Assembly (NCBI RefSeq): GCF_900167415.1
Contig: NZ_FUWU01000025.1
Location: 1 to 45,235, forward strand
Direction of reading: 5' to 3'
Source of the DNA: Fibrobacter intestinalis
GTDB lineage: Bacteria; Fibrobacterota; Fibrobacteria; Fibrobacterales; Fibrobacteraceae
DNA: 45,235 bases
Shown: positions 1,019-41,701 of the stretch, in pieces
Position numbering within the stretch: position 1 is the first letter of the stretch
Layout of the letters: every line of letters begins with the position of its first letter
Made by a program: the position numbers and the translations under genes
The notes under the pieces: generated by a model
What the model was told of the DNA's origin: nothing
Databases searched by the model: none
The model's input: the letters and a program-made list of their open reading frames with translations, nothing else

Positions 1019-2797
1019 CTACCCGCCAGAAGGCAGATACATCCGTTCGATTTCTTGGGCGAAGCGAGCTTCCACCGCTTTGCGGCGTAGTTTAAAAGTC
1101 GGCGTCAGCAATCCGGATTCCACCGAAAGCGGTTCGGCGACCAGCGTCCATTTTTTGATGCGCTCCCAGTGGTTCAGCTTTCGGTTTACCGCATCGATAT
1201 AATCCTGCACACGGCAAAGAATGCGCTCGTCTTGCAAAGCTTCTTCGGCATGAAAATTCCGGCGGTTCGTTCCCAAAATGCGCATAGCGTCGTCGCATTC
1301 CAAAAAGAGTATCGCCGAAACGAATTTCCGATTGTTCGCAATTACCAAGGCGGCATCAATCAACGGATGGCGTCCCAGTTCTAGTTCAATGGGAACCGGC
1401 GAAACATATTTGCCCGTGCTCGTTTTAAAAATTTCTTTGATACGCCCTGTCAAAAAAAGATATCCGTCTTCGTCGAGTAGCCCCTGATCCCCGGTGCGAA
1501 AATACCCGTCCGAAGTCCACGCTTCCCGATTCATTTCGGGCATGTTGCGATAGCCGTGAAACACGCTCGGCCCCTTGACCAGGATTTCGTTTTGCGGACC
1601 GATTTTGACGCGCAATCCGGCGATGGGCTTTCCTACCGATCCGATTTTGTACGCCCCCGTGATATTCGTGCTGACCACAGGACAGCATTCCGTAAGGCCG
1701 TAGCCTTCAAAAACCGGAAAGCCGACATTGACCAGAAAGCGGAAAACTGTCTTGTTCAACGCGCTGCTTCCCGAAATAATCCATTTGAAATTTCCGCCAA
1801 ACGCTTCGCGAATTTTCCGATAGACCAATCTGTCGTAAAAATTTCTGCGCCATTTTCCTCGACCGGGAATATTCTTCTTCGCAAAAAGCATCGCCCGGTG
1901 CATTATCCTGCGCTTCAGCCCCCGCAGTTTGTATTCCCGCGCCGAAACCGCGTCGGCGAGTTTTTCCAAAATCCGCGGAACAAAGGTGCATATCGCCGGA
2001 TGCACTTCGTAAGCGATAACCCCCAGATTTTTGGGGGAGTCCGCAAAATAGATCTTTACATGGCGGGAAATGTAAAAGCAAATCGCCATCCGCTCAAAAA
2101 CATGGGCAACGGGCAAAACACTCAAAGCGGAGTCCGTTTTCACGTCCAAATGGATCATCGGCGAAAGCGCGCCAATCATCGAAAGCATATTCCGGTGCGA
2201 AAGCTCCGCCCCTTTGGGAAGCCCGGTCGAACCGCTCGTATAAATGACCGAAAACAAATCCTGCGGGCGGATTCCCTCCAGACGATATTGAAAATAGGCG
2301 CGGGCGCCTTCCTCTTTCGCGAGGATTTCGCCTTCGTAAAGCAGATTTTTCCAATAGACGCCATTCAAGGGAAGCGGCGAATTTTCGTCAAAGCAAAAAA
2401 TGTAGCGAAAATGCGCCAGATGCTTGCGAACGCCGGCATCCAGGTTGTCAATGCGATCGACGGCCAAAAAAGCGATTTCCGAATCCTTGCACTGGAATTC
2501 AAAATGCTCTTCACTGATATTGGGAAAAAGCGGAACGGTCGGCGCATGGCAAATTTCGCACGCCAGATCCGCAATAAACCAGTTTGGAGAAGAGTCGGCA
2601 ATGATACCCAGACTTTTTCCTTCGCCCACGCCATATTTAGCGAGAGCCAAAGTCGCATAGAGCAGCATTTTTTCCAGTTTGTCGCCCGAATACGCATCCC
2701 AAAAACCATCCCGCCGTTTGAACCAGCCGGGGAAATCGGGATCGCGGCACATATCGAGAAACTGCGCCGGAAGGGATTGAAAGTCTTCGCTTTTCAT
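1019..2797 (-). CDS. Long-chain acyl-CoA synthetase (AMP-forming)
   Basis: A 592-residue protein of the ANL adenylating superfamily, which activates a fatty acid with ATP to an acyl-adenylate and then forms the acyl-CoA thioester. The P-loop signature YTSGSTGLPKGAELSHRN is at residues 186-203. The adenine-binding block FEGYGLTECCPVV, the hinge region YFRTGDQGLLDEDGYLFLTG and RIKEIFKTSTGKYVSP follow in the normal order. Length fits bacterial FadD-type enzymes (about 560-640). There is no signal peptide. It is monocistronic and divergent from gdhA. It could also serve as an acyl-ACP synthetase-like salvage enzyme; the chain-length preference cannot be read from the sequence. Confidence 0.92.
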   Translation of the reverse strand: MKSEDFQSLPAQFLDMCRDPDFPGWFKRRDGFWDAYSGDKLEKMLLYATLALAKYGVGEGKSLGIIADSSPNWFIADLACEICHAPTVPLFPNISEEHFEFQCKDSEIAFLAVDRIDNLDAGVRKHLAHFRYIFCFDENSPLPLNGVYWKNLLYEGEILAKEEGARAYFQYRLEGIRPQDLFSVIYTSGSTGLPKGAELSHRNMLSMIGALSPMIHLDVKTDSALSVLPVAHVFERMAICFYISRHVKIYFADSPKNLGVIAYEVHPAICTFVPRILEKLADAVSAREYKLRGLKRRIMHRAMLFAKKNIPGRGKWRRNFYDRLVYRKIREAFGGNFKWIISGSSALNKTVFRFLVNVGFPVFEGYGLTECCPVVSTNITGAYKIGSVGKPIAGLRVKIGPQNEILVKGPSVFHGYRNMPEMNREAWTSDGYFRTGDQGLLDEDGYLFLTGRIKEIFKTSTGKYVSPVPIELELGRHPLIDAALVIANNRKFVSAILFLECDDAMRILGTNRRNFHAEEALQDERILCRVQDYIDAVNRKLNHWERIKKWTLVAEPLSVESGLLTPTFKLRRKAVEARFAQEIERMYLPSGG

Positions 2798-2872
2798 ACG
2801 ATTCTTGCCATCAAAATACCTTTTTCCACAAAAAATGCGATAAAAAAGCAGATTTTGAAAAAAAAATTTTGA

Positions 2873-4414
<1,542 letters not shown>

Positions 4415-6688: not shown

Positions 6689-7153
6689 ATGAATGATGAA
6701 ATCTGGATGCAAGAAGCCATTCGAGAAGCAAGAACCGGCATCGAACGCAATGAAGGCGGGCCCTTTGGAACCGTCATTGTCAAGGACGGAAAAATTGTGG
6801 GACGCGGACACAACGGCGTTCTTTTAAAGCACGACCCGACCTGCCACGGAGAAATCGAAGCGATTCGCGATGCCTGCAAAAATCTGGGGACGCATATTTT
6901 AAAAGGCTGCACGCTTTACACGACTTCGGAACCTTGCCCCATGTGCCTTGGCGGTATTCTATGGGCGAAGATCGATTCCATCGTCTGCGGGTGCAATGTC
7001 CGGGATGCCGAAAAAATCGGTTTCGGCGACAATTCCTTTTACGAAATTCTCACTGGGAAAGAACGCGGAAAACTCCAGCGGCGCACAGCCTGTCGGGAAG
7101 ATTGCCTGCAACTTTTCCAGGACTATTCCCGCAAAACGGATACGCGCTACTAA
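6689..7153 (+). CDS. Guanine deaminase-like cytidine/deoxycytidylate deaminase family enzyme
   Basis: A 154-residue zinc-dependent deaminase. The zinc and catalytic residues are His53 and Glu55 (CHGEIEAI) and Cys83/Cys86 (EPCPMC). The GGPFGTVIVKDGKIVGRG N-terminus, the DPTCHGEIEAIR spacing and the 154-residue length resemble the small Bacillus-type guanine deaminase (GuaD), which converts guanine to xanthine. The tRNA adenosine deaminase TadA is the main alternative. The ATG at 6689 follows AGAGG and gives the family start; the frame is open from 6644. It begins a plus-strand gene run but is probably transcribed alone. Confidence 0.8.
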   Translation: MNDEIWMQEAIREARTGIERNEGGPFGTVIVKDGKIVGRGHNGVLLKHDPTCHGEIEAIRDACKNLGTHILKGCTLYTTSEPCPMCLGGILWAKIDSIVCGCNVRDAEKIGFGDNSFYEILTGKERGKLQRRTACREDCLQLFQDYSRKTDTRY

Positions 7154-7193
7154 ACCCACAGCGCAGACACCAAAATGTTGTTAAATTGAAACT

Positions 7194-7745
7194 ATGCTTT
7201 TAAAACAAAATCCCCTTTGGGAATCCAAAAAAGAAAAGAACTCCCCCGTTGTCGTCGCCCATCTTTTCAAAGACAATTCCTTTTTGCATGTCCGCTTTCA
7301 AGTTTCCGAGCCGGAAAATTGTTACGCCTCCTTTATTCGTCAAGACGGCGACCACGCTTGGGAAGACAGCTGCGTCGAAATTTTCGTCCGGGCTCTCGAC
7401 AATCCGAACGAGTATATCAATTTTGAATTCACCAGCAAAGCCTTCTGTTATGCGGCCCGTGGCAGAGATCGCTTTCATCGCAAAGAATTTTTGCGCAACC
7501 GGTATTCCCGCATTCTGCGTTCGACGACAGCTCCCGTTTTTCAAAACGGCACGGTTTCCTGGGAAATCCACGTTTCCATTCCCGCGCAACTCCTGGGAGC
7601 CGAAAATCTGGCGGGGGAAGAAATTTTCGGGAATCTTTACAAATGCGCGGACAGGGCTCGCACTCCCCACTACCTGACCCTATTTCCCATTTCGACAGAA
7701 CGTCCCGATTTTCACCAGCCCCGATTTTTCCAGAAACTTTTATAA
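7194..7745 (+). CDS. CBM9-like carbohydrate-binding domain protein, no signal peptide
   Basis: A 183-residue single-domain protein. The blocks HAWEDSCVEIFVRA (about residues 61-74), YINFEFTSKAFCYAARG and the closing GNLYKCADRARTPHYLTLFP resemble the family 9-like carbohydrate-binding/DOMON-type beta-sandwich found in many uncharacterised bacterial proteins. No signal peptide or lipobox is visible, so it appears cytosolic, which is odd for a sugar-binding fold. It sits 14 bases before the M23 peptidase gene and is probably cotranscribed with it. I cannot name a ligand. Confidence 0.65.
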   Translation: MLLKQNPLWESKKEKNSPVVVAHLFKDNSFLHVRFQVSEPENCYASFIRQDGDHAWEDSCVEIFVRALDNPNEYINFEFTSKAFCYAARGRDRFHRKEFLRNRYSRILRSTTAPVFQNGTVSWEIHVSIPAQLLGAENLAGEEIFGNLYKCADRARTPHYLTLFPISTERPDFHQPRFFQKLL

Positions 7746-7759
7746 AAGGACGGCTTTGA

Positions 7760-9607
7760 ATGCCCATTTTCCGACTTAGCCTTTTCCTTTGCGCCGCCAT
7801 GCTTTGGGGACAGGACTTGCTGTACATGCCATTTGGAAAGCCGGGATTTCTCACCTCTTCCTTCGGAGAAAATCGGGGAACGCGTTACCATGCGGGCATC
7901 GACTATTCCACGGAAATGCAGGAAGGCTTCCCGGTCCTGGCTCCGGAAGAGGGAAAAATCGTCCGGGTCAAGGTCTCGCCCTATTTTTACGGCAAGGTCA
8001 TCTACTTTCAGGGAAAAAGCGGGCGCACTTGGGTCTTTGCGCACCTCAGCGGTTTTTCAGGGCAGCTTCACGCCTTGATTCAAAAGACCCAGAATCAAAA
8101 ACGCCGGAACGATGTCGCTCTGGAAAATCCGAAAATTCCCGCATTCCGCTATGGAGACACGCTGGCATTTACCGGCAGCTCCGGCATCGGAAATCCGCAT
8201 TTGCATCTGGAATTGCGAGACGGTGAAAACGTCCTGAATCCCTGTCGGAACGGCGTCTTTTGCGGAGACACGCTGGAACCGCTCATTCTCGGAGCCGCGG
8301 TTTTTCAGGGAGAAAGCGTTTCCCTTTCCGGCGAAAGCGATTTGAAAGCGGGCTGTCTGGCCGAGCCGAACCCGAAAAACCGGCAGGATCCGTTGCGATT
8401 CGCATTCAAAATCGCCGATTACAGCCGTGAACCGCTGGAAAATCCGATGTCCATTCGGCGACTCACCTTAAAAAATGGCGGCAAAATCATCGGCGAGACC
8501 GTTCACGACACGCTGTCCTATTCCGGCATGATTCAAATTCGCGAAGAACTTTTGTGGGCGGAAGAAGCGGACACGGCTGGCGACTGGCACTGGATTTCCG
8601 AGCCGTACATCCCGGACGCCAACGACTCTCTTACTCTGGAAGCCGAAGACATGGTCGGGCACGTCGCCTCCCGAAAATTGACGCTTTCAAAAGAATGCCC
8701 TGGGGAAAAGCCGATACGGCAAGGAAAAAATCAACGCCCCGAACTCTTCACGTTTTTAAGCCGCCCATGGGTGGGGTTGCATCTTTGCCAGAGCGAGGAT
8801 TCCAAAACCGCATTTTTCTTCTTCAGCCGCGGAGAACTGCTGGCCGACGCCTGCAAAGAAGTCGAACCCGTCGCGACGCCTCTGGGGAAACTTCTGGAAA
8901 TATACCCCGGCATCGACGAAATCCGTCTTGTGCAGAACGGAAAAACGGACACCATCCGAATCGGGGAAATTCCCGCAGACGCTCAAAACTTTCAACTGGA
9001 GACCCGATGGGACGGGCATTCCATTCGGCAACAGGTCACCGAACTTGCCGACGTTCCGTGGACAAGAATCCTCGCCGTACGAAAATTCCAGAACGACAGC
9101 GTTCCCGCTTTTGAATTTCATCCCAAGGGACTTCATTTTTTGGGAAGCTGGACCGTCGCTTTTGACGCGGAACTCGCCCAAGCGCCCCTCTACTATCTTG
9201 GGGAAACCAGCCGGAAATGGTTCCTCTTCAGCAAGCAGAAAGCCGCCATCCGGGAACGGAGCGCCAGCATGAACGAACTTCGGGATATCGGTTTCATCTT
9301 GGACAAAACGCCGCCCGAATTGGGAACGCCTCGTCTGGATTCCGCCATGATTGCGGGCAAAAGGCAAAAAGTCCTTCGGATTCCCGTCATCGAAACGGAG
9401 TCCGGAATCGAAAACGGCAACTCTATCCAGGCAAGCGCCAAAGGCAAGCCTTTCATCTATGCCGAATACGATTCGGAGCCGAAAGAACTCGTCTTTGTTT
9501 ACAGCGATCTTCCCTCCGGAAAAAATTTCACCATCCGAATCCAGGATGAAGTGGGCAACGCCAAATCATTCCTCGTGGACATTCCCCGCAAAACAGATTC
9601 GGAATAA
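7760..9607 (+). CDS. Secreted M23 (LytM-type) metallopeptidase with long C-terminal region
   Basis: A 615-residue protein. A short hydrophobic N-terminus (MPIFRLSLFLCAAMLWG) looks like a signal peptide. The M23 domain covers about residues 25-155, with His44 and Asp48 (HAGIDYS), His147 and His149 (NPHLHLELRDG) as the zinc/catalytic set, all present. It should cut peptidoglycan cross-links or act on an envelope protein. The remaining ~450 residues are beta-rich, with Ig-like fragments (ESGIENGNSIQASAKGK, LPSGKNFTIRIQDEVGNAKS), and have no family that I recognise. The intact zinc ligands argue for an active enzyme rather than an EnvC-type activator. Confidence 0.85.
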   Translation: MPIFRLSLFLCAAMLWGQDLLYMPFGKPGFLTSSFGENRGTRYHAGIDYSTEMQEGFPVLAPEEGKIVRVKVSPYFYGKVIYFQGKSGRTWVFAHLSGFSGQLHALIQKTQNQKRRNDVALENPKIPAFRYGDTLAFTGSSGIGNPHLHLELRDGENVLNPCRNGVFCGDTLEPLILGAAVFQGESVSLSGESDLKAGCLAEPNPKNRQDPLRFAFKIADYSREPLENPMSIRRLTLKNGGKIIGETVHDTLSYSGMIQIREELLWAEEADTAGDWHWISEPYIPDANDSLTLEAEDMVGHVASRKLTLSKECPGEKPIRQGKNQRPELFTFLSRPWVGLHLCQSEDSKTAFFFFSRGELLADACKEVEPVATPLGKLLEIYPGIDEIRLVQNGKTDTIRIGEIPADAQNFQLETRWDGHSIRQQVTELADVPWTRILAVRKFQNDSVPAFEFHPKGLHFLGSWTVAFDAELAQAPLYYLGETSRKWFLFSKQKAAIRERSASMNELRDIGFILDKTPPELGTPRLDSAMIAGKRQKVLRIPVIETESGIENGNSIQASAKGKPFIYAEYDSEPKELVFVYSDLPSGKNFTIRIQDEVGNAKSFLVDIPRKTDSE

Positions 9608-9628
9608 GATATTATAATTGCACATCAA

Positions 9629-10765
9629 ATGGCTAACGACCCCTATATACTTGTAGAAAACCAGGAAACTCTCGACAAACTGCTCGACGATCTTTCCCTC
9701 TACGATATGGCTGCTGTCGATACCGAAGCGGATTCCATGTATCACTACAACGTCCGCCTATGCCTTGTGCAAATCACTATCGGAGAGCACCATTACATAG
9801 TCGATCCCTTGGCTCCCATCGACATCCGTCCGATTTTTAAAACACGGGCGATGAACACCTTGATTTTGCACGGGGCCGATTACGATTTGCGGATGCTCTG
9901 GCATACTTTCCGCTTTTCTCCAAAACACGTTTTTGACACGATGATCGCCGCTAAATTTTTGGGCGAAGAAGGACTCGGCTACGCCAGCCTGGTTAAAAAG
10001 TATTTTGGAATCGACTTGCCCAAGGACAACCAGAAATCCGACTGGACAACCCGCCCGCTGCCCTCGGATATGTGCGAATACGCCATTCACGACACTTTCT
10101 ATCTGCACGAACTTTGCGCCCTTTTGGGCGAGCAACTCAAAGCTCAAGGAAAATTCAGCTGGATGATCGAAACCTGCAACAACCTCATAGATAAGGTGAT
10201 GCAGACGAAAGAGGAAAACGGGGAAAGATGGCGCATTGCCGGTGCTTTCCGTTTGCCGCCCAAATCCCTGAATATTCTTAAACATATCTGGCTATGGCGT
10301 GAAAAGGAAGCGCAAAAAATGGATCGCCCGCCCTACAAGGTTTTTGGCAATGAACTGATGCTCGCCATTGTCCGCTCCGTATCCTACTCTTTCCCGGCAA
10401 TCCAAGAAAACATCCTTCCTAAACTGCCCCGCAATTTTACGGGAGAACGCCGCGCGGAATTTCTTTCCATGTTGCAAAGCGCCGTGTCCATTCCCCAGAA
10501 ACAGTGGCCCCCCATGCAGCCCAAAGTGCCTCCTCCGCAAATCATTCCCGACGGCGAACTCATCGACTCGCTGAAAGAATGGAGGGACGAAAGGGCGCAC
10601 GAATTGGATTTGAACGAGTCCATGCTGGCCAATCGTGCCCAACTGATCGCCCTCGCCACTCCGGTAGGAGCGTCCTGGGACGACCGTTACGACGCCGCGC
10701 ATTTTTTGAACTGGCAGCGTTCCGTATGGAACGGAATTCTTTCCCATAAACTGGCAGGTAACTGA
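9629..10765 (+). CDS. rnd: Ribonuclease D family 3'-5' exoribonuclease
   Basis: A 378-residue DEDDy exonuclease. Exo I is Asp31/Glu33 (AAVDTEADS), Exo II is the Asp in LILHGADYDLRML, and Exo III is YAIHD (Tyr-x3-Asp). A C-terminal helical HRDC-like part (about residues 205-375) includes LKHIWLWREKEAQKMDRPPY, typical of RNase D. It trims 3' ends of tRNA precursors and other structured RNAs. Length matches E. coli RNase D (375). Its stop codon overlaps the tatA start by one base, so the two are translationally coupled. Confidence 0.92.
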   Translation: MANDPYILVENQETLDKLLDDLSLYDMAAVDTEADSMYHYNVRLCLVQITIGEHHYIVDPLAPIDIRPIFKTRAMNTLILHGADYDLRMLWHTFRFSPKHVFDTMIAAKFLGEEGLGYASLVKKYFGIDLPKDNQKSDWTTRPLPSDMCEYAIHDTFYLHELCALLGEQLKAQGKFSWMIETCNNLIDKVMQTKEENGERWRIAGAFRLPPKSLNILKHIWLWREKEAQKMDRPPYKVFGNELMLAIVRSVSYSFPAIQENILPKLPRNFTGERRAEFLSMLQSAVSIPQKQWPPMQPKVPPPQIIPDGELIDSLKEWRDERAHELDLNESMLANRAQLIALATPVGASWDDRYDAAHFLNWQRSVWNGILSHKLAGN

Positions 10766-33968: not shown

Positions 33969-34076
33969 TTACTTCACGCGGATTTTCTGAATTTCCTTGC
34001 CTATGCGGACGATATATGCGCCGGCGTTCTGCAATTCCATCGAGAATTCCGGGGAAATTTCGGAATTACACGCCCG
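33969..34076 (-). pseudogene. C-terminal remnant of a secreted protein (type IX-like tail)
   Basis: Minus-strand frame running from a stop at 34077-34079 to TAA at 33969. It reads ISPEFSMELQNAGAYIVRIG and closes with KEIQKIRVK. A short beta-hairpin ending in 'GxYIVRIGxxxxKIxVK' is what C-terminal sorting or FlgD-like tails of Fibrobacter and Bacteroidota secreted proteins look like. There is no start codon context and no body upstream: the upstream DNA is the 3' end of another gene in a different frame. I read it as the left-over tail of a replaced gene. Confidence 0.5.
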
Positions 34077-34675: not shown

Positions 34676-35650
34676 TTAATCTTTGAGGCAACGGACGGAA
34701 CACCCGAGGTCCTTGTAGTTGTAATACGAGTGCACGTGCTCGTCCTCGTAGAAGAAGTACCAGCTGTACGCACCGTCGCCGCTGCGGCCCTCCGTAGACC
34801 TCCAGAAGTGCGCGATCTTGCCGGCGTTGCGGTAATAGTCATCGCCAAGGCGGAAGCCCGCTGGCAACACGGAAAAGCCGTATTCGTCCGTACCGTTGCC
34901 ACTTTCTCCTTCATAATCGACCCAGCCGCCAGTGGACTTGAGCTTTTTTCCAGCGACATCCTCACCGCCAACAGTTTCGATCAGAACCTTCCATTCTGCA
35001 TCGCTGGGCAAGTGCCAACCTTCGGGGCAGACTCCGCGAACCGGTTCCGTCGCAGAGCACTTTATGCCGTAGCCGCAGCCCTTGCCGCCATCGCTAAAGA
35101 CTCCGGCACTGTCCATGGCAGCAGCCCAGGTGTAGAGTCTTCCATATTTGGCGCAGGAATCCGGCTCGTTTCTGTAGCAGAAGCTGGAGGAATCTTCTGT
35201 ACTTGTTGGCTGCAAATAAGCGTAGTTCAAATTCTCCGCCATCCATGTCTGGGTTCCAATGGTCACGGTCTTGTAAACCTGCCCGTCGCGGGAATCCGTG
35301 AACGTGCCATAAGCAATATTCGGATTCAAATACTGCCAGTTTACTTTTTCTAACGACGAACTGGAAGACGATTCAAAAACCGAATTACCGTCCATTGTCA
35401 CGACTCTTCCATCGCTCAACGTGATGTAGCCTGTGTTCGGGTCGAATACGCCCACCACATTGCCGTTTGCATCGCGGACGGTCAGATCCGAGTAAACGTC
35501 CCCCACAGGAACCTGAGAGACTAGGGTTGCATTGGGGTCCGCTTCAGGAATGGCGTTCCCGCTGGCTGAAGAACCGCTATCGTCGCCACAGGCGGCTAGG
35601 AAAAGAGCCGACAAAATAGTGAATGCAAAAATGGATTTTCTGATGTTCAT
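34676..35650 (-). CDS. FISUMP-domain lipoprotein
   Basis: A 324-residue lipoprotein. The signal and lipobox are MNIRKSIFAFTILSALFLAAC (Cys21), followed by a Gly/Asp/Ser linker. Residues about 30-95 form a small beta domain (DLTVRDANGNVVGVFDPNTG). From about residue 110 the Fibrobacter succinogenes major paralogous domain runs to the end: TVTIGTQTWMAENLNY, YGRLYTWAAAMDS, GVCPEGWHLPSDAEW and GFSVLPAGFR. These surface lipoproteins are expanded in Fibrobacter, and their role is not established. It lies between two paralogous small-protein genes and would be transcribed with them. Confidence 0.92.
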   Translation of the reverse strand: MNIRKSIFAFTILSALFLAACGDDSGSSASGNAIPEADPNATLVSQVPVGDVYSDLTVRDANGNVVGVFDPNTGYITLSDGRVVTMDGNSVFESSSSSSLEKVNWQYLNPNIAYGTFTDSRDGQVYKTVTIGTQTWMAENLNYAYLQPTSTEDSSSFCYRNEPDSCAKYGRLYTWAAAMDSAGVFSDGGKGCGYGIKCSATEPVRGVCPEGWHLPSDAEWKVLIETVGGEDVAGKKLKSTGGWVDYEGESGNGTDEYGFSVLPAGFRLGDDYYRNAGKIAHFWRSTEGRSGDGAYSWYFFYEDEHVHSYYNYKDLGCSVRCLKD

Positions 35651-35702: not shown

Positions 35703-36281
35703 CTATCTAAAAAGCGATTTTTTTACGCAAAGAAAATTTTCCACCAGAAGAGCAAATTTTGAATCGTTTGCCCTTTGGGGACAAAGCCACGAGAAATCGG
35801 AAACGGGACGAATCTTCGCTTTAGAAAAACTCAAGACTCTCAGTTTCATCAACTTCTTTGCGCCCTCCTCTGTCCCACGATGCAAATAGACCTCCTGCGG
35901 TTCAAAATTGCAATTTGGATTTTGTTTCTGTAAAAAAATTCCAAGGCGAAGGGCGGCATCATAAATAGCCAGAGGACCGAGATATTTCGGCTTGCACTTT
36001 TCCAAAAGGTCATGAAGGCCCTTAAAATCCTGACACTTTAAAATCGCCTTTTTTATTTTACTGACATTCTCAAAAAACGCCTGCTTGGCGATTTTTCGAA
36101 TTCTGTACTGGTGAGGTTCGAGTTTGTCCTTCTTGTTATGGAAAAAGCAGGCTTCCCGAATGGCGGTGTCGATATTTGGCAAAGACTGATAATAATCTTG
36201 AAGTTCTTTATAGGTGTCCACACCTTCTTGCCAAAAGTCCTGAAAGAACTGGGCTATTGGAATTCGATTTACTTGTGCCAT
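35703..36281 (-). CDS. Conserved protein of unknown function (paralogue of 34066-34623)
   Basis: A 192-residue soluble protein. I start at ATG 36281 (MAQVNRIPIAQFF), after GGGA; the frame is open to 36377. Shared with its paralogue are the HQYRIRKIA block, then LGPLAIYDAALRLGIFL, then QEVYLHRGTEEGAKKLM and a closing NFLCV. It is the first gene of the small protein-FISUMP-small protein set. The DNA directly upstream is the candidate invertible promoter segment, whose left inverted repeat ends 13 bases before the start codon. Function is unknown; a DNA-binding role is possible from the G-x-G turn but unproven. Confidence 0.75.
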   Translation of the reverse strand: MAQVNRIPIAQFFQDFWQEGVDTYKELQDYYQSLPNIDTAIREACFFHNKKDKLEPHQYRIRKIAKQAFFENVSKIKKAILKCQDFKGLHDLLEKCKPKYLGPLAIYDAALRLGIFLQKQNPNCNFEPQEVYLHRGTEEGAKKLMKLRVLSFSKAKIRPVSDFSWLCPQRANDSKFALLVENFLCVKKSLFR

Positions 36282-36293
36282 GATGGATTTCCC

Positions 36294-36583
36294 TTTTTCG
36301 CAGAAGTGCGCTTCTGCGAAAAAAACATCTTGGGAAGAGGCTTTGCACACGGCTTTTTCCCGACTCGGAGCCGCCACCGAGCAAAAAGGGGACGGGTTGG
36401 AACACTTCCGGCAGGGAAATCCGCTCGCCGGGGTTAGAATTCAAGTCCTCGGAGTTGATTTCCGTCAAATTTGCAAAGAACCGGTAGGAATTTTTATCCT
36501 TTGCGTATTGACAAGTTCACAAATCCGACTTATATTTTGCTTATTGTTAATGAAAGCTTTCGCAGAAGCGCACTTCTGCGAAA
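36294..36583. repeat. Candidate invertible segment with 26-bp inverted repeats
   Basis: The left repeat (36296-36321) and right repeat (36558-36583) are exact reverse complements over 26 bases. Each is also nearly palindromic: TTTCGCAGAAG, then a four-base centre (TGCG on the left, CGCA on the right), then CTTCTGCGAAA. The left stem extends to 13 pairs. The 236-bp segment between contains a strong promoter facing right. The right repeat abuts the stop codon of a tyrosine recombinase gene; the left repeat is 13 bases from the start codon of the 192-residue protein gene. Neither hairpin has the T-run of a terminator. Inversion is inference. Confidence 0.6.
36508..36536 (+). promoter_or_regulatory. 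Strong sigma70-type promoter inside the inverted-repeat segment
   Basis: TTGACA (36508-36513), a 17-base spacer and TATATT (36531-36536). In the present orientation it points into the 3' end of the recombinase gene on the opposite strand. No plus-strand gene follows for more than 3.6 kb. Confidence 0.7.
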
Positions 36584-36584
36584 T

Positions 36585-37718
36585 TCACTGCCGGACCGGC
36601 TTGCGCCCGGAACCTCCCGATTTTCCAAAACTTTCGTTCCAATATCCGCCATTCATTTGCCCGCTTTGATTTTGCGCCCGCTTCGGGTTCTTCACGAACT
36701 CCCAGAACGCTTCCTGCACGCGCCGCTTGCTCTCGAAAGTCGGGTGCACATAAAAATCCAGCGTGGTGTGCGTGCTGGCGTGGCCGAGAAGTACCGAGAG
36801 CGTTTTCAGGTCCTTGTTAGAAGTCAGCGCGTGGGTGGCGAAGCTGTGCCGCAGGGTGTGGATGTGGGCGTCCACCGCAATTCCTGCCGCCTTCAGGAAC
36901 TTCTTGAAATGGTTCTGCAATGTCCGCTGGTCGTACTTCACCAGGAAGGATTCCGAGGGATTTTCCCCCGCCATTTTTTCCAGCCATTGGAGCAGATTTT
37001 CCGGGATGGGGATTTCCCGGTGGCCGCTTTCGCTTTTCGGCGGGCAGAGCTTGCGGATGGTCTTCGGGGGCTTTATATTTTCGCGGGTTTCCGTTTCCGC
37101 AGGCTGGTTAAAAGTTCTGCCTTTCCCGAATTTTCCCGGCGCATTCCAATTTGAGGCATTCACAATTTCTCGCCTTTCCTTCGTTATATCGGCGACATTT
37201 TCATTGGGCAAGCGTTCCAGCGTACCATAAATCCGAATGGTATTCCGTACAAAGTCGAAATCCGAAAATTTCAGGGCACAGGCTTCCCCCAGACGCATCC
37301 CGGTGAAAGCGATCAGCAAGAGGCTCCGGGCCGAATTTTCCAGTTTCGGATTTTCGTTCTTTTCCAACACATCAATCAGCGCGGCCAGTTCCTCTGGCGA
37401 GAGGGGAACCGCTTCCCCTTTCCGAGTCGCCCCAGTGTGGGGAAAATCCAGCGCACTAAAATCCTCCGGCGAAAGTGCCGATTTCAAAATCTGCTGCAAG
37501 GTCGCCAGCACGAAACGCCGCGTCGAAACCGCAAGATCTCCGAGAGCGCGCTCCGCAAAATTTCGCACGAGATCCGAATCAAAACCGACCAGCTCCACTT
37601 CGCCAAAATACGGCAGCAAATACTTTTGCAGAATATTCCCGTATTTCGCCCGGGAACTCTCGCTCCAACTCGCACACTTCTTTTCAAACCACTTTTTTGC
37701 CGCTTCCTTGAACCGCAT
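36585..37718 (-). CDS. Tyrosine recombinase/integrase
   Basis: A 377-residue site-specific recombinase. The N-terminal SAM-like core-binding domain covers about residues 1-95. The catalytic domain has Arg142 (TGMRLGEACAL), Lys229 (PKSESGHREIPI), His287 and Arg290 (HTLRHSFATHAL), His313 (LLGHASTHTTL) and the nucleophile Tyr323 (LDFY): a complete set. An unusual insert (about residues 172-225, ending near KPPKTIRKLCPP) and a Gly/Ser-rich tail are extra. The gene stands alone, with no phage or conjugation genes around it, and its stop codon adjoins one arm of an inverted-repeat pair. An invertase role therefore fits better than prophage integration. Confidence 0.92.
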   Translation of the reverse strand: MRFKEAAKKWFEKKCASWSESSRAKYGNILQKYLLPYFGEVELVGFDSDLVRNFAERALGDLAVSTRRFVLATLQQILKSALSPEDFSALDFPHTGATRKGEAVPLSPEELAALIDVLEKNENPKLENSARSLLLIAFTGMRLGEACALKFSDFDFVRNTIRIYGTLERLPNENVADITKERREIVNASNWNAPGKFGKGRTFNQPAETETRENIKPPKTIRKLCPPKSESGHREIPIPENLLQWLEKMAGENPSESFLVKYDQRTLQNHFKKFLKAAGIAVDAHIHTLRHSFATHALTSNKDLKTLSVLLGHASTHTTLDFYVHPTFESKRRVQEAFWEFVKNPKRAQNQSGQMNGGYWNESFGKSGGSGRKPVRQ

Positions 37719-37950
37719 GGCGTCTCCTTTGTTGTATGACGGTGCAAAGTTTGCAAAAAATTCTCGAAAAAGAAACAGATTGCCACGGTGCTACGCTCCT
37801 CGCAATGACGTGCCGCTGGCTTGGATTGCCACGTCGCTACGCTCCTCGCAATGACGGAATGCTGGTTCGGGTTGCTCCGTCATTGTGCGCCCGCCAAGGA
37901 GAAAATCAGCCACGTTTGAAAGCGACCGTCACCCCGAACCCCGGAGGGGT

Positions 37951-38041
37951 TATACGACACTTGTCAATTTATTGACTTAGTGGAGTTATCCTCTATGTGG
38001 ATATACGACACTTGGTAACTTTGTTACCTTAGTGGAGTTAT
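37951..38041. repeat. Tandem pair of hairpins with compensatory stem changes
   Basis: Two units start with TATACGACACTT and end with TTAGTGGAGTTAT (37951-37989 and 38002-38041; period 51). The outer CACT/AGTG pairing is conserved. The inner stem is GTCAA/TTGAC with loop TTTA in the first copy and GGTAAC/GTTACC with loop TTT in the second. Confidence 0.8.
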
Positions 38042-38194
38042 ACTCGAAGTGTAGAAGCAATCCTTTCACGCAGCCAAGATTGCTTCGCTTTGCTCGCAAT
38101 GACGGGAAGCCAGCCAAGGATTGCCACGTCGCTCTGCTCCTCGCAATGACGGGATGCCCGCGCAGATTGCCACGGCTTTGCATCCCTGAAACTT

Positions 38195-38262
38195 GGAATC
38201 TCCGATTCCATAGTTGAAGTATCCCTGAAAGGGACAATTCGCCTAAGGGAAGCAGAGCTTCC
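38195..38262. repeat. Cluster of three perfect triloop hairpins
   Basis: GGAATC-TCC-GATTCC (38195-38209), TCCCT-GAA-AGGGA (38222-38234) and GGAAGC-AGA-GCTTCC (38248-38262). All have three-base loops and are spaced 12-13 bases apart. Confidence 0.75.
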
Positions 38263-38361
38263 AAGGCTCATGGGCCGCTATCGCTGCTCGCAATGACGTA
38301 CCGCTGGCGATAACTTGTGTTCCATTTGACAAAGGCCGACTTTGCATCGAAACAGGTATTT

Positions 38362-38608
38362 TTCATTTAGTCAAAGCCAGAAAAAACAAAAAAAATGCCT
38401 TTTTCATTTAATCGAAGTTCCAAAATGCGAAAAGATACCTTCGTTCATTTAGTCGAAGCTCCAAAATGCGAAAAGATGCCTTCGTTCATTTAGTCGAAGC
38501 TCCAAAAAGCAGAAAAAACGGCTTCGTTCATTTAGTCGAAACCCCAAAAGGCGAAAAGACGGCTTTGTTCGTTTAGTCGAAGCTCCAAAATGCGAAAAAC
38601 GGCAGACA
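38362..38608. repeat. 41-base tandem repeat, six copies
   Basis: Units start at 38362, 38403, 38444, 38485, 38527 and 38568. The consensus start is TTCATTTAGTCGAAGCTCCA, followed by a more variable A-rich part and usually CCTTCG or GGCTTCG at the end. CTTCG at one unit's end pairs with CGAAG of the next across a ten-base loop. The period is not a multiple of three, so it is not a coding repeat. Confidence 0.85.
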
Positions 38609-38674
38609 GCCGTTTCTCCCAACTTCCCTCTTGGAAAAAGACATCCCCTCAAGAAAATTATTACCCGAAAAACA

Positions 38675-40093
38675 TCATCCTAGCTTCAAAACTTCGGCGA
38701 TTTTTTGAACCGCCAGAGGGATTTTATTTTGCGGCACCGAAGAATAATTGACCACAAATTCATGGCTGGAAGGCTCGGAAATGGCATAATAATCGGAAAG
38801 TGCCCGCAAAAAAACGCCCTTTTCCCGCAATAGCGCACAAAAATCTTCGTCCTTCAAATCGGTCTTCACTTTTAAAATGAAGTGCAGTCCCGCATCCTGC
38901 CCGGCGATTTCCACAAAATCCTTCAAGCGGCTTTGCCGAATGGCCTCTATCAAAAAATCCCGACGCCCGCGGTAAAAATTTCGCATTCGGTTGATGTGCT
39001 TTTCATAAAAACCGCCCGCGATGTATGTCGCCAACACATACTGCTCCAAATTGGAAACCGTGCAAGTGTAAAACGAAAATTCATTTCGGAATCTTTGGGC
39101 CAGCGATTTTGGAAGAACCATATAGCCGACGCGCACCGTCGAAGCCAGCGTTTTGGTGAACGAGTTGATGTAAATGGTCTTTTCTTGAACGTCGATACTC
39201 TGCAGCGAAGGAATCGGATGCCCTACCATGCGAAACTCGCTGTCGTATTCGTCTTCCACGATATAGCGGTTGCTGGATCTGGACGCCCATCCCAAAAGTT
39301 CATAACGGCGACTGATCGGCATGACCCTGCCTGTCGGAAAATGGTGCGACGGCGAGATATGCACAACATCCGTACAAGTTTCTTCCAGCTGGTCAATGCG
39401 AATGCCGTTTTCATCCATCGGAATAAAATGGCAGACGACGTTCAGCTTGCGATAAATTTTGGAAATTTTGCTGTAGCCCGGATCTTCGACGCCATATTTT
39501 TTATCGAATCCCAAAAGCTGAACGAGCCAGCTGTAAAGGCAGTCCGTGCCCGCGCCGACTACAATGCACTCCGGATCCACCGAAAGCCCCCGAAAATCGA
39601 AGAGCATTTTCGCAATCGCCACCCGCAATTCCCGAATGCCACAGTGCGGAGAACGCTTGAGCAAATCCCTTTGCCGTTCGCCCAGCACCCGCCGGGCAAT
39701 GGTCGCCCAGGTCGAAAAAGGAAAACTGGATTCTTCCAGCTGGTTGTCGGCAAAATTCGCCACGAGCTCTGTCGGCGCTTCGCTTTTTTCTTCCCGGGAT
39801 TCACGCGATTCGGGCAAGGCGGGCTGTTTTTGCACGGATTCTTTGGGCGTGCGTATTGCCGACACGAAAAATCCCTTTCTGGGCTGCGTCCATATAAAGC
39901 CTTCGGCGAGCAACTGGGCGTAGGCATTTTCCACGGTCACCACGCTCACCCCGAGTTGCCTTGCAAAAGGGCGTTTGGACGGCAATTTCTGATCGGCTTC
40001 GAGGCGCCCCGCCAGAATATCGTTCCGGATGGAGCGGTAAAGAAAATGGTAGAGGCTTTCGTCGCCCGAATTTTTCATTTCGTAGGATAGCAT
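38675..40093 (-). CDS. pdxR: MocR/PdxR-type regulator (GntR helix-turn-helix plus aminotransferase domain)
   Basis: A 472-residue MocR-family regulator. The N-terminal GntR winged helix (about residues 10-80) reads LYRSIRNDILAGRLEADQKL, then SVVTVENAYAQLLAEGF. The class I aminotransferase-like domain (about 120-472) contains the PLP-binding Lys region INSFTKTLASTVRVGYM and IVEDEYDSEFR. Such proteins sense PLP and activate pdxST when it is low. It is divergent from pdxS across 138 bases with a paired operator. The ATG at 40093 has GAGGTG just before it; an in-frame ATG at 40078 has none. Confidence 0.92.
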   Translation of the reverse strand: MLSYEMKNSGDESLYHFLYRSIRNDILAGRLEADQKLPSKRPFARQLGVSVVTVENAYAQLLAEGFIWTQPRKGFFVSAIRTPKESVQKQPALPESRESREEKSEAPTELVANFADNQLEESSFPFSTWATIARRVLGERQRDLLKRSPHCGIRELRVAIAKMLFDFRGLSVDPECIVVGAGTDCLYSWLVQLLGFDKKYGVEDPGYSKISKIYRKLNVVCHFIPMDENGIRIDQLEETCTDVVHISPSHHFPTGRVMPISRRYELLGWASRSSNRYIVEDEYDSEFRMVGHPIPSLQSIDVQEKTIYINSFTKTLASTVRVGYMVLPKSLAQRFRNEFSFYTCTVSNLEQYVLATYIAGGFYEKHINRMRNFYRGRRDFLIEAIRQSRLKDFVEIAGQDAGLHFILKVKTDLKDEDFCALLREKGVFLRALSDYYAISEPSSHEFVVNYSSVPQNKIPLAVQKIAEVLKLG

Positions 40094-40113
40094 TTCACCT
40101 CGGTGACTTCAAT

Positions 40114-40133
40114 CTGGCCATAAACTGGCCGTA
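40114..40133. promoter_or_regulatory. Candidate PdxR operator, paired CTGGCC boxes
   Basis: CTGGCCAT at 40114-40121 and CTGGCCGT at 40125-40132 form a direct repeat with an 11-base period, about one helical turn, in the pdxR-pdxS divergent region. MocR regulators typically bind direct repeats in such gaps. A weak pdxS promoter candidate (TTGAAC-N16-TAGAAA, 40150-40177) follows. Confidence 0.55.
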
Positions 40134-40231
40134 TCGAAATAATAGAAATTTGAACATTTCAAAAGGTCAAGTAGAAAACTAATTTACGGGATGAAAACGG
40201 AATTTTCCGCAGATTTCAAGGAGAAAACACA

Positions 40232-41110
40232 ATGGCTACCGAAAACCGCTACGAATTGAACAAGAATCTCGCCCAGATGCTCAAGGGGGGCGTCATCATG
40301 GACGTGACCACGCCGGAACAGGCAAAAATCGCCGAAGAAGCCGGTGCCGCCGCCGTGATGGCACTCGAGCGCATTCCCGCCGACATCCGCGCCGCAGGAG
40401 GCGTTTCCCGCATGAGCGACCCGAAAATGATTCAGGGCATCCAGAACGCCGTTTCCATCCCCGTCATGGCAAAGTGCCGCATCGGACACTTTGTGGAAGC
40501 GCAACTTCTCGAAGCCATTGAAATCGACTACATCGACGAAAGCGAAGTACTCTCCCCCGCCGACGACGTTTTCCACATCAACAAGCACGAGTTTAAAGTG
40601 CCGTTTGTCTGCGGAGCCAAAGACCTCGGCGAAGCGCTCCGTCGCATTGAAGAGGGCGCATCGATGATCCGCACCAAAGGCGAGCCGGGAACGGGCGACA
40701 TCGTGCAGGCCGTCCGCCACATGCGCTTGATGAATCAGGAAATCGCCCGCATTTCGTCCATGCGCGAAGACGAGCTTTTCAACCGAGCAAAGGAATTGCA
40801 GGTTTCCTACGAACTGGTGAAATATGTGCACGACAACAAGCGTCTTCCGGTGGTGAACTTTGCCGCGGGCGGTGTGGCGACTCCGGCCGATGCGGCTCTT
40901 ATGATGCAGCTCGGAGCCGAAGGCGTTTTCGTCGGTTCGGGCATTTTCAAATCGGGAAATCCGGCAAAGCGCGCCGCCGCCATCGTTCAAGCGGTGACAA
41001 ACTTCAAGGACGCCAAGCTTATCGCCAAACTTTCGGAAGATTTGGGCGAAGCAATGGTCGGCATCAACGAACAGGAAATTTCCCTGCTTATGGCGGAAAG
41101 AGGCAAGTAA
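40232..41110 (+). CDS. pdxS: Pyridoxal 5'-phosphate synthase subunit PdxS
   Basis: A 292-residue TIM-barrel subunit that builds PLP from ribose 5-phosphate, glyceraldehyde 3-phosphate and PdxT-derived ammonia. The family blocks are [35 protein letters not shown] (catalytic Lys) and [16 protein letters not shown]. The phosphate loops [15 protein letters not shown] and [10 protein letters not shown] complete the site. Length and order are typical. A strong AAGGAG precedes the ATG. The pdxT start follows its stop codon with no gap. Confidence 0.97.
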
Positions 41111-41701
41111 ATGGGTTCCGGGAAAATCCCCCGAATAGGCGTTCTGGCGGTGCAGGGCGCATTCATCGAACACGTTCAGATGCTTTCCCAAATCGGCGCA
41201 GACGCTTTTGAAATCCGCCAGTTGAAAGACTTGGACGGACCTTTTAACGGGCTTGTTCTTCCCGGCGGAGAAAGCACCGTGCAAGGAAAGCTACTGAAAG
41301 ACCTCGGGCTTTTCCTTCCCCTGCAAAAGCGGATTCAAGAAGGGATGCCCGTACTCGGAACCTGTGCGGGACTTATCCTTTTGGCGGAAACGCTGAGCAA
41401 CGACAGCGCAACTTACTTCGGGACTCTTCCCGTCACCGTGCAGCGCAACGCCTACGGTCGCCAACTGGGCAGTTTCTTTGTAGAAGAGGAAATGGATGGC
41501 GTCGGAAAAATCCCGATGACATTCATCCGCGCACCCTTTGTGGAAAACGTCCGCGAAGGGGTGCAAATCCTCGCCCGGGTGGAAAACCGCATCGTCGCCG
41601 TCCGTTACAAAAATCAGTTGGCCATTTCGTTTCATCCGGAATTGAACGCGGACGAACGTCTGCACAGGCACTTCCTGGCGATGGTTTCTGAAAACGCCTA
41701 G
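41111..41701 (+). CDS. pdxT: Pyridoxal 5'-phosphate synthase glutaminase subunit PdxT
   Basis: A 196-residue class I-type glutaminase. The nucleophile is Cys85 (VLGTCAGLILLAE), with His175 and Glu177 (SFHPELN) as the rest of the triad; VQGAFIEHVQML and LPGGEST are PdxT signatures. It makes ammonia and channels it to PdxS. It is directly joined to pdxS and under the same control. The ATG begins immediately after the pdxS TAA. Confidence 0.96.
   Translation: MGSGKIPRIGVLAVQGAFIEHVQMLSQIGADAFEIRQLKDLDGPFNGLVLPGGESTVQGKLLKDLGLFLPLQKRIQEGMPVLGTCAGLILLAETLSNDSATYFGTLPVTVQRNAYGRQLGSFFVEEEMDGVGKIPMTFIRAPFVENVREGVQILARVENRIVAVRYKNQLAISFHPELNADERLHRHFLAMVSENA

What the first reader, a model, noticed from the sequence alone, without database searches (positions are those of the whole stretch)
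36294..37718. Candidate phase-variable invertible promoter beside a tyrosine recombinase, controlling a FISUMP lipoprotein set
Seen: two 26-bp exact inverted repeats 236 bp apart; a near-consensus promoter (TTGACA-N17-TATATT) between them; one repeat touching the stop codon of a complete tyrosine recombinase gene; the other 13 bases from the first of three minus-strand genes (small protein, FISUMP lipoprotein, small protein). Known: in Bacteroidota such recombinases flip promoters between inverted repeats to switch surface genes. Inference: the promoter now points away from the lipoprotein set (OFF); inversion would point it toward the set (ON). The caveat is that each repeat is itself almost palindromic, so its orientation rests on the four-base centre, and two copies of a REP-like palindrome could look the same.
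Basis: partly seen in the sequence, partly recalled or inferred. Interest (0 to 1): 0.8.

Follow-up and report, generated by a model that had tools for sequence, protein, structure and literature searches.

The report
Family of flippable promoter switches
This Fibrobacter-family bacterium carries at least six copies of a small DNA switch, nearly all with their own recombinase, that probably flips a promoter to turn on different sets of surface and defence-like genes; one of those sets contains a built-in hypermutation machine (a diversity-generating retroelement).

Summary
In detail: two exact 26-nt inverted repeats, 236 bp apart, a TTGACA-N17-TATATT promoter between them, and an intact tyrosine recombinase ending 1 bp from one repeat. 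The REP objection fails: the repeat occurs 12 times in the 3.29-Mb genome, always at such modules. There are six modules (five with the promoter segment); a second species has a seventh. The repeat arms are invariant, while the 4-bp centres differ between modules yet match exactly within every pair (TGCG/CGCA, TACT/AGTA, GGCT/AGCC), as strand exchange requires. The promoter keeps its position and direction everywhere; recombinases are under purifying selection with all catalytic residues. Cargo starts right after the second repeat and differs by module. Inversion itself was not seen: all six readable modules face OFF. New here: the window FISUMP lipoprotein carries the variable region of a diversity-generating retroelement (26/58 template adenines changed versus 7/135 other bases), whose only reverse transcriptase lies in the cargo of another module (contig C92). 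The window copy lacks the post-VR hairpin, so it may be a retired target. Best reading: a lineage-specific Tsr19-like family of invertible promoters controlling surface, defence-like and DGR operons. New variant of a known kind.

The parts
36585..37718 (-). Tyrosine recombinase, 377 aa; catalytic R142, K228, H287, R290, H313, Y323 conserved in all six aligned relatives
36558..36583 (-). IR1, recombinase-proximal site, centre TGCG read in the recombinase direction
36296..36321 (-). IR2, cargo-proximal site, centre CGCA; followed at once by the ribosome-binding site of the first cargo gene
36322..36557 (.). 236-bp segment predicted to invert
   Evidence: no other orientation found
36508..36536 (+). 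Promoter TTGACA-N17-TATATT, now pointing at the recombinase 3' end (OFF for the cargo)
36353..36392 (.). Well-conserved non-promoter block of the segment (CTTTTTGCTCGG..GGCGG..CCGAG.CGGGAAAA), function unknown
35703..36281 (-). First cargo gene, 192 aa, no known domain; relatives in two other family genomes also lie directly before FISUMP genes
34676..35650 (-). FISUMP (Fib_succ_major) lipoprotein
34684..34879 (-). DGR-type variable region: 26/58 template adenines changed versus 7/135 other bases, p=2e-10; lacks the downstream hairpin seen at four other variable regions of the genome
34066..34623 (-). Third cargo gene, 185 aa, paralogue of the first (32% identity)
33969..34052 (-). Remnant of a C-terminal sorting-type domain (..ELQNAGAYIVRIGKEIQKIRVK-stop), like the ends of the surface proteins in modules C63, C64, C76
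33908..33947 (-). Intrinsic terminator at the end of the cargo unit (11-bp stem, T6, -21 kcal/mol); a similar stem follows modules C63 and C76

Best explanation
The locus is one of at least six phase-variation modules in this genome. The tyrosine recombinase binds the 11-bp arms of the two 26-bp sites, exchanges strands across the 4-bp (or slightly larger) centre and inverts the 236-bp segment. In the orientation assembled here the single promoter fires toward the recombinase 3' end (cargo OFF; inferred antisense transcription into the recombinase). After inversion the promoter would lie just upstream of the cargo-side site and drive the operon 36281-33908: small gene, FISUMP lipoprotein, small gene, terminator. 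Sister modules put other cargo (SIR2-like, FRG-domain, DUF2971-like, 8xMP-type genes, GLUG-repeat surface proteins, FISUMP variable proteins, and in C92 a whole DGR with Avd-like gene, template and reverse transcriptase) behind the same switch. Shown: sites, promoter, family of modules, centre matching, selection on the recombinase, DGR signature. Inferred: inversion, ON/OFF expression, cross-acting recombinases, co-control of the DGR.
For: Site found 12 times, all in modules; 2 further sites form a module in genome G005, no site at full identity in the other 109 family genomes. Centres match as reverse complements in all five complete pairs although three centre types exist. Promoter with 17-nt spacing at the same place and direction in all modules including G005, no comparable match toward the cargo; -10 columns 100% and arms 100% identical to G005 against 66% for the whole segment. 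Recombinase dN/dS 0.21-0.34, catalytic residues invariant. Homology between modules stops at IR2/RBS, after which cargo differs. Precedent: B. fragilis Tsr19 (BF2766), adjacent to and inverting a surface-operon promoter and a distant one near a lipoprotein gene (PMC4747536).
Against: No inverted copy was seen: C53, C64, C92, C76, the module made of C54 or C31 plus C63, and G005 all carry the OFF orientation, which has a 1/64 chance if both states were equally common. No read data could be examined. One module (C22) has a single site and no promoter segment, and the C64 recombinase is frameshifted.
Confidence: 0.82

Rival explanations
1. Fixed switch remnant: the modules once inverted but are now locked, and the promoter serves as an antisense element or does nothing.
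For: All six readable orientations are the same; the C64 recombinase is broken and C22 lacks the segment.
Against: The other recombinases, including the G005 one, are intact and under purifying selection; centres still match in every pair; a promoter with no target would not be expected to stay conserved across species.
Confidence: 0.1
2. The repeats are RNA hairpins (terminator of the recombinase, 5'-UTR element of the cargo) or a REP-like element, not recombination sites.
For: Each repeat folds into a hairpin of -14.7 kcal/mol, and IR1 scores as terminator-like.
Against: A hairpin does not require the loop of one copy to be the reverse complement of the loop of the other, yet this holds in five of five pairs with three centre types; sites occur nowhere outside modules; no clear T-run follows either repeat.
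Confidence: 0.04
3. Integron-like or mobile cassette system: the recombinase captures or exchanges cargo at the sites, with the promoter as an expression platform.
For: Same recombinase/promoter platform with different cargo in each module; in C22 the cargo joins directly to a single site.
Against: No third site lies at the far end of any cargo; cargo exchange looks like homologous recombination, because C53, C63, C64 and C76 also share a 3' sorting-domain end.
Confidence: 0.04

Closest known systems
[quoted passage not shown]
   Same: Tyrosine recombinase next to a promoter segment flanked by inverted repeats that drives a surface operon; a lipoprotein cluster is a second target; OFF form prevalent in the wild type.
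   Different: Different phylum-level lineage; a recombinase copy at nearly every switch; highly palindromic 11+4+11 site; defence-like and DGR cargo; inversion not yet shown.
Global B. fragilis invertases (Mpi, serine type; Tsr0667), as summarised in PMC4747536
   Same: Many dispersed promoters in one genome with a shared site.
   Different: Those use one master invertase acting at a distance; here modules carry their own copies, with centre types that could separate them.
Diversity-generating retroelements with Fib_succ_major/DUF1566 variable proteins (PMC4159848)
   Same: Adenine-specific changes in the C-terminal FISUMP domain, Avd-like gene, template, RT with IGNLTSQ and YVDD, post-VR hairpins.
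   Different: The retroelement lies in the cargo of an invertible-promoter module, and three switch modules carry its variable regions; no paper found in the searched library describes this pairing.

Membership tests
Tyrosine-recombinase invertible promoter (inverton) | Inverted repeats flanking a promoter, next to a transcription unit | tested here: met
Tyrosine-recombinase invertible promoter (inverton) | Tyrosine recombinase with complete catalytic set (R, K, H/R, H, Y) | tested here: met
Tyrosine-recombinase invertible promoter (inverton) | Identical crossover centre in the two sites of a pair | tested here: met
   five of five complete pairs, three centre types
Tyrosine-recombinase invertible promoter (inverton) | Both orientations exist in a population or among relatives | tested here: inconclusive
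   only one orientation in two genomes; reads not available
Tyrosine-recombinase invertible promoter (inverton) | Expression of cargo depends on orientation | not testable with these tools
   needs RNA data
Diversity-generating retroelement (C92) and its window target | RT with DGR motifs beside a template repeat | tested here: met
   PF00078 E=3.5e-14, IGNLTSQ and YVDD; template directly upstream of the RT frame
Diversity-generating retroelement (C92) and its window target | Template-to-variable-region changes concentrated on adenines | tested here: met
   p from 1e-8 to 3e-17 in eight variable regions, window 2e-10
Diversity-generating retroelement (C92) and its window target | Accessory Avd protein | tested here: inconclusive
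   NF033474 E=0.028, below the curated cut-off, but the gene lies between targets and template
Diversity-generating retroelement (C92) and its window target | Complete initiation site and hairpin after the variable region in the window gene | tested here: not met
   hairpin present at C92 x2, C64, C116; absent in window and C29, so the window copy is called a former or impaired target

The most novel reading that the evidence does not exclude
Two diversification systems are stacked: a lineage-specific family of invertible promoters decides which surface/defence operons are on, and one of the switches turns on and off the genome's only DGR of this kind, which rewrites FISUMP lipoproteins that themselves sit behind other switches. 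Hypermutation would then be a phase-variable trait.
Probability: 0.5. Interest if true: 0.8.

Novelty: new variant of a known kind. Interest (0 to 1): 0.62.

Why it matters
Phase variation by promoter inversion is well documented in Bacteroidales, but the searched library holds no paper that mentions Fibrobacter together with invertible DNA. If the switches work, fibre degraders of this family bet-hedge on surface and defence-like genes, and in at least one module the mutagenic retroelement itself would be under ON/OFF control. How DGR activity is restrained is an open question, and this locus makes it testable with simple PCR and RNA assays.

Tried and rejected
REP element: rejected, site restricted to modules. 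Searches for flipped copies or more modules: own genome, genus, family, phylum, genome contigs and IMG/VR gave none beyond G000 and G005. Contig breaks inside the segment as proof of mixed orientation: rejected, they are explained by stretches identical over 688 nt between modules. Intrinsic terminator inside the segment: not found. Structure predictions of the FISUMP protein (pLDDT 34.5) and of the first cargo gene (pLDDT 55, no PDB match below E=0.4) were too poor to use. Defence function of the window's own cargo: no match in PADLOC, Pfam or NCBIfam, so not claimed.

Full report
Observation. The two 26-nt repeats at 36296-36321 and 36558-36583 are exact reverse complements. Each consists of 11-bp arms and a 4-bp centre.

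A family of modules. The site occurs 12 times in the 3.29-Mb genome (24 hits counting both strands of a near-palindrome) and never outside modules of the form recombinase - IR1 - 236 to 238 bp - IR2 - cargo. Complete: C53 (window), C64, C92. C76 has both sites and the last 450 nt of a recombinase. C31 and C54 end inside the segment and C63 begins inside it. The left ends of C76, C31 and C54 are identical over 688 nt, so C31 and C54 most simply continue into C76 and C63 in one order or the other, giving two modules. C22 has a recombinase, one site and cargo but no segment. So there are six modules, five with the promoter segment. A second species of the genus, complete genome G005, has one module with a recombinase of 60% identity. 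No other of 111 family or 168 phylum genomes has the recombinase family at the threshold used, nor IMG/VR; genome contigs gave only distant matches.

Why recombination sites. In all five complete pairs the centre of IR1 is the reverse complement of that of IR2, although three centre types exist: TGCG (C53, C76), TACT (C64, C92), GGCT (G005). Matching of the centre within a pair is what strand exchange needs and what a pair of RNA hairpins would not need. The arms are identical in all copies, including G005, while the segment as a whole is 66% identical to G005.

Why a promoter switch. In every module a sigma70-type promoter with 17-nt spacing and TATATT sits at nearly the same distance from IR1 and points through IR1 into the recombinase end; the cargo-directed strand has at best 7 of 12 matches in own-genome modules and 8 in G005. 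In this orientation it has no gene to drive. IR2 is followed within a few bases by a purine-rich ribosome-binding site of the first cargo gene in every module. Inversion would place the promoter directly upstream of the cargo.

Why the enzyme looks alive. R142, K228, H287, R290, H291, H313 and Y323 are invariant, and dN/dS between copies is 0.21-0.34; the C64 copy alone is frameshifted. C64 shares centre TACT with C92, whose recombinase might act in trans (inference).

Orientation. All readable modules are OFF (six of six). This points to a strong OFF bias, as reported for B. fragilis IVp-I in wild type (PMC4747536), or to a locked switch. It is the main weakness.

Cargo. Window: 192-aa gene, FISUMP lipoprotein, 185-aa paralogue of the first (32%), remnant of a C-terminal sorting-type domain and a strong terminator. 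Relatives of the first gene in G029 and G030 also lie directly before FISUMP genes, so the pairing also exists without this switch. C63: FRG-domain protein, PADLOC PDC-S15 E=1.6e-84. C76: weak PDC-S31/DUF2971. C64: 8xMP membrane protein. C92: a 578-aa protein that looks SIR2-like by eye (no family match), two small genes, two FISUMP genes, Avd-like gene, template, RT. C53, C63, C64 and C76 share the same 3' sorting-domain end, which suggests that cargo was exchanged between a conserved switch and a conserved tail by homologous recombination (inference).

Retroelement. The C92 template (L045:9157-9354) matches variable regions in C92 (2), C116, C64 (3), the window, C29, C41 and C108. Changes fall on template adenines: window 26/58 versus 7/135 other bases, p=2e-10; eight regions tested, p 1e-8 to 3e-17. 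The RT has IGNLTSQ and YVDD and is the only one of its kind found in the genome. From IR2 of C92 to the terminator at L045:10589-10611 no terminator-like site lies between genes, so the retroelement is probably within the switched unit (inference). A strong hairpin typical of DGR targets follows the variable regions in C92, C64 and C116 but not in the window or C29: the window protein bears the record of diversification but may no longer be a target.

Known and new. Fib_succ_major variable proteins of DGRs are known (PMC4159848), and invertible promoters with adjacent tyrosine recombinases are known (PMC4747536). The library searched has no paper with Fibrobacter and invertible DNA and none was found that ties a DGR to an invertible promoter; that library lacks most subscription papers.

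Noticed in passing
L039 (G000:C22), 3876-4100: Module with recombinase, a single site (centre CGCA) and cargo but no promoter segment; looks like a deletion of the segment, which inverted sites should not normally produce (or an assembly error).
   Followed up: partly
L043 (G000:C64), 3284-4346: Recombinase frameshifted although its two sites still match each other.
   Followed up: partly
36353-36392: Block of the segment more conserved than the average in both species, not a terminator; possible accessory binding site.
   Followed up: no
L045 (G000:C92), 2715-3962: Recombinase carries an extra stretch of about 60 residues near its N-terminus.
   Followed up: no
L095 (G000:C29): A FISUMP variable-region gene without a switch lies next to an apparent relative of the first cargo gene of module C22.
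   Followed up: no
37777-38639: Dispersed GATTGCCACG..CGCAATGACG repeats and a 41-bp tandem array upstream of the recombinase; similar repeats precede other recombinases.
   Followed up: no
L046 (G005), 6884-10297: Transposase-like gene followed by several tandem FISUMP genes behind the G005 switch, in a genome without a matching DGR reverse transcriptase.
   Followed up: partly
38675-41701: PdxR-type MocR regulator beside what read like pdxS and pdxT genes; ordinary vitamin B6 locus.
   Followed up: no
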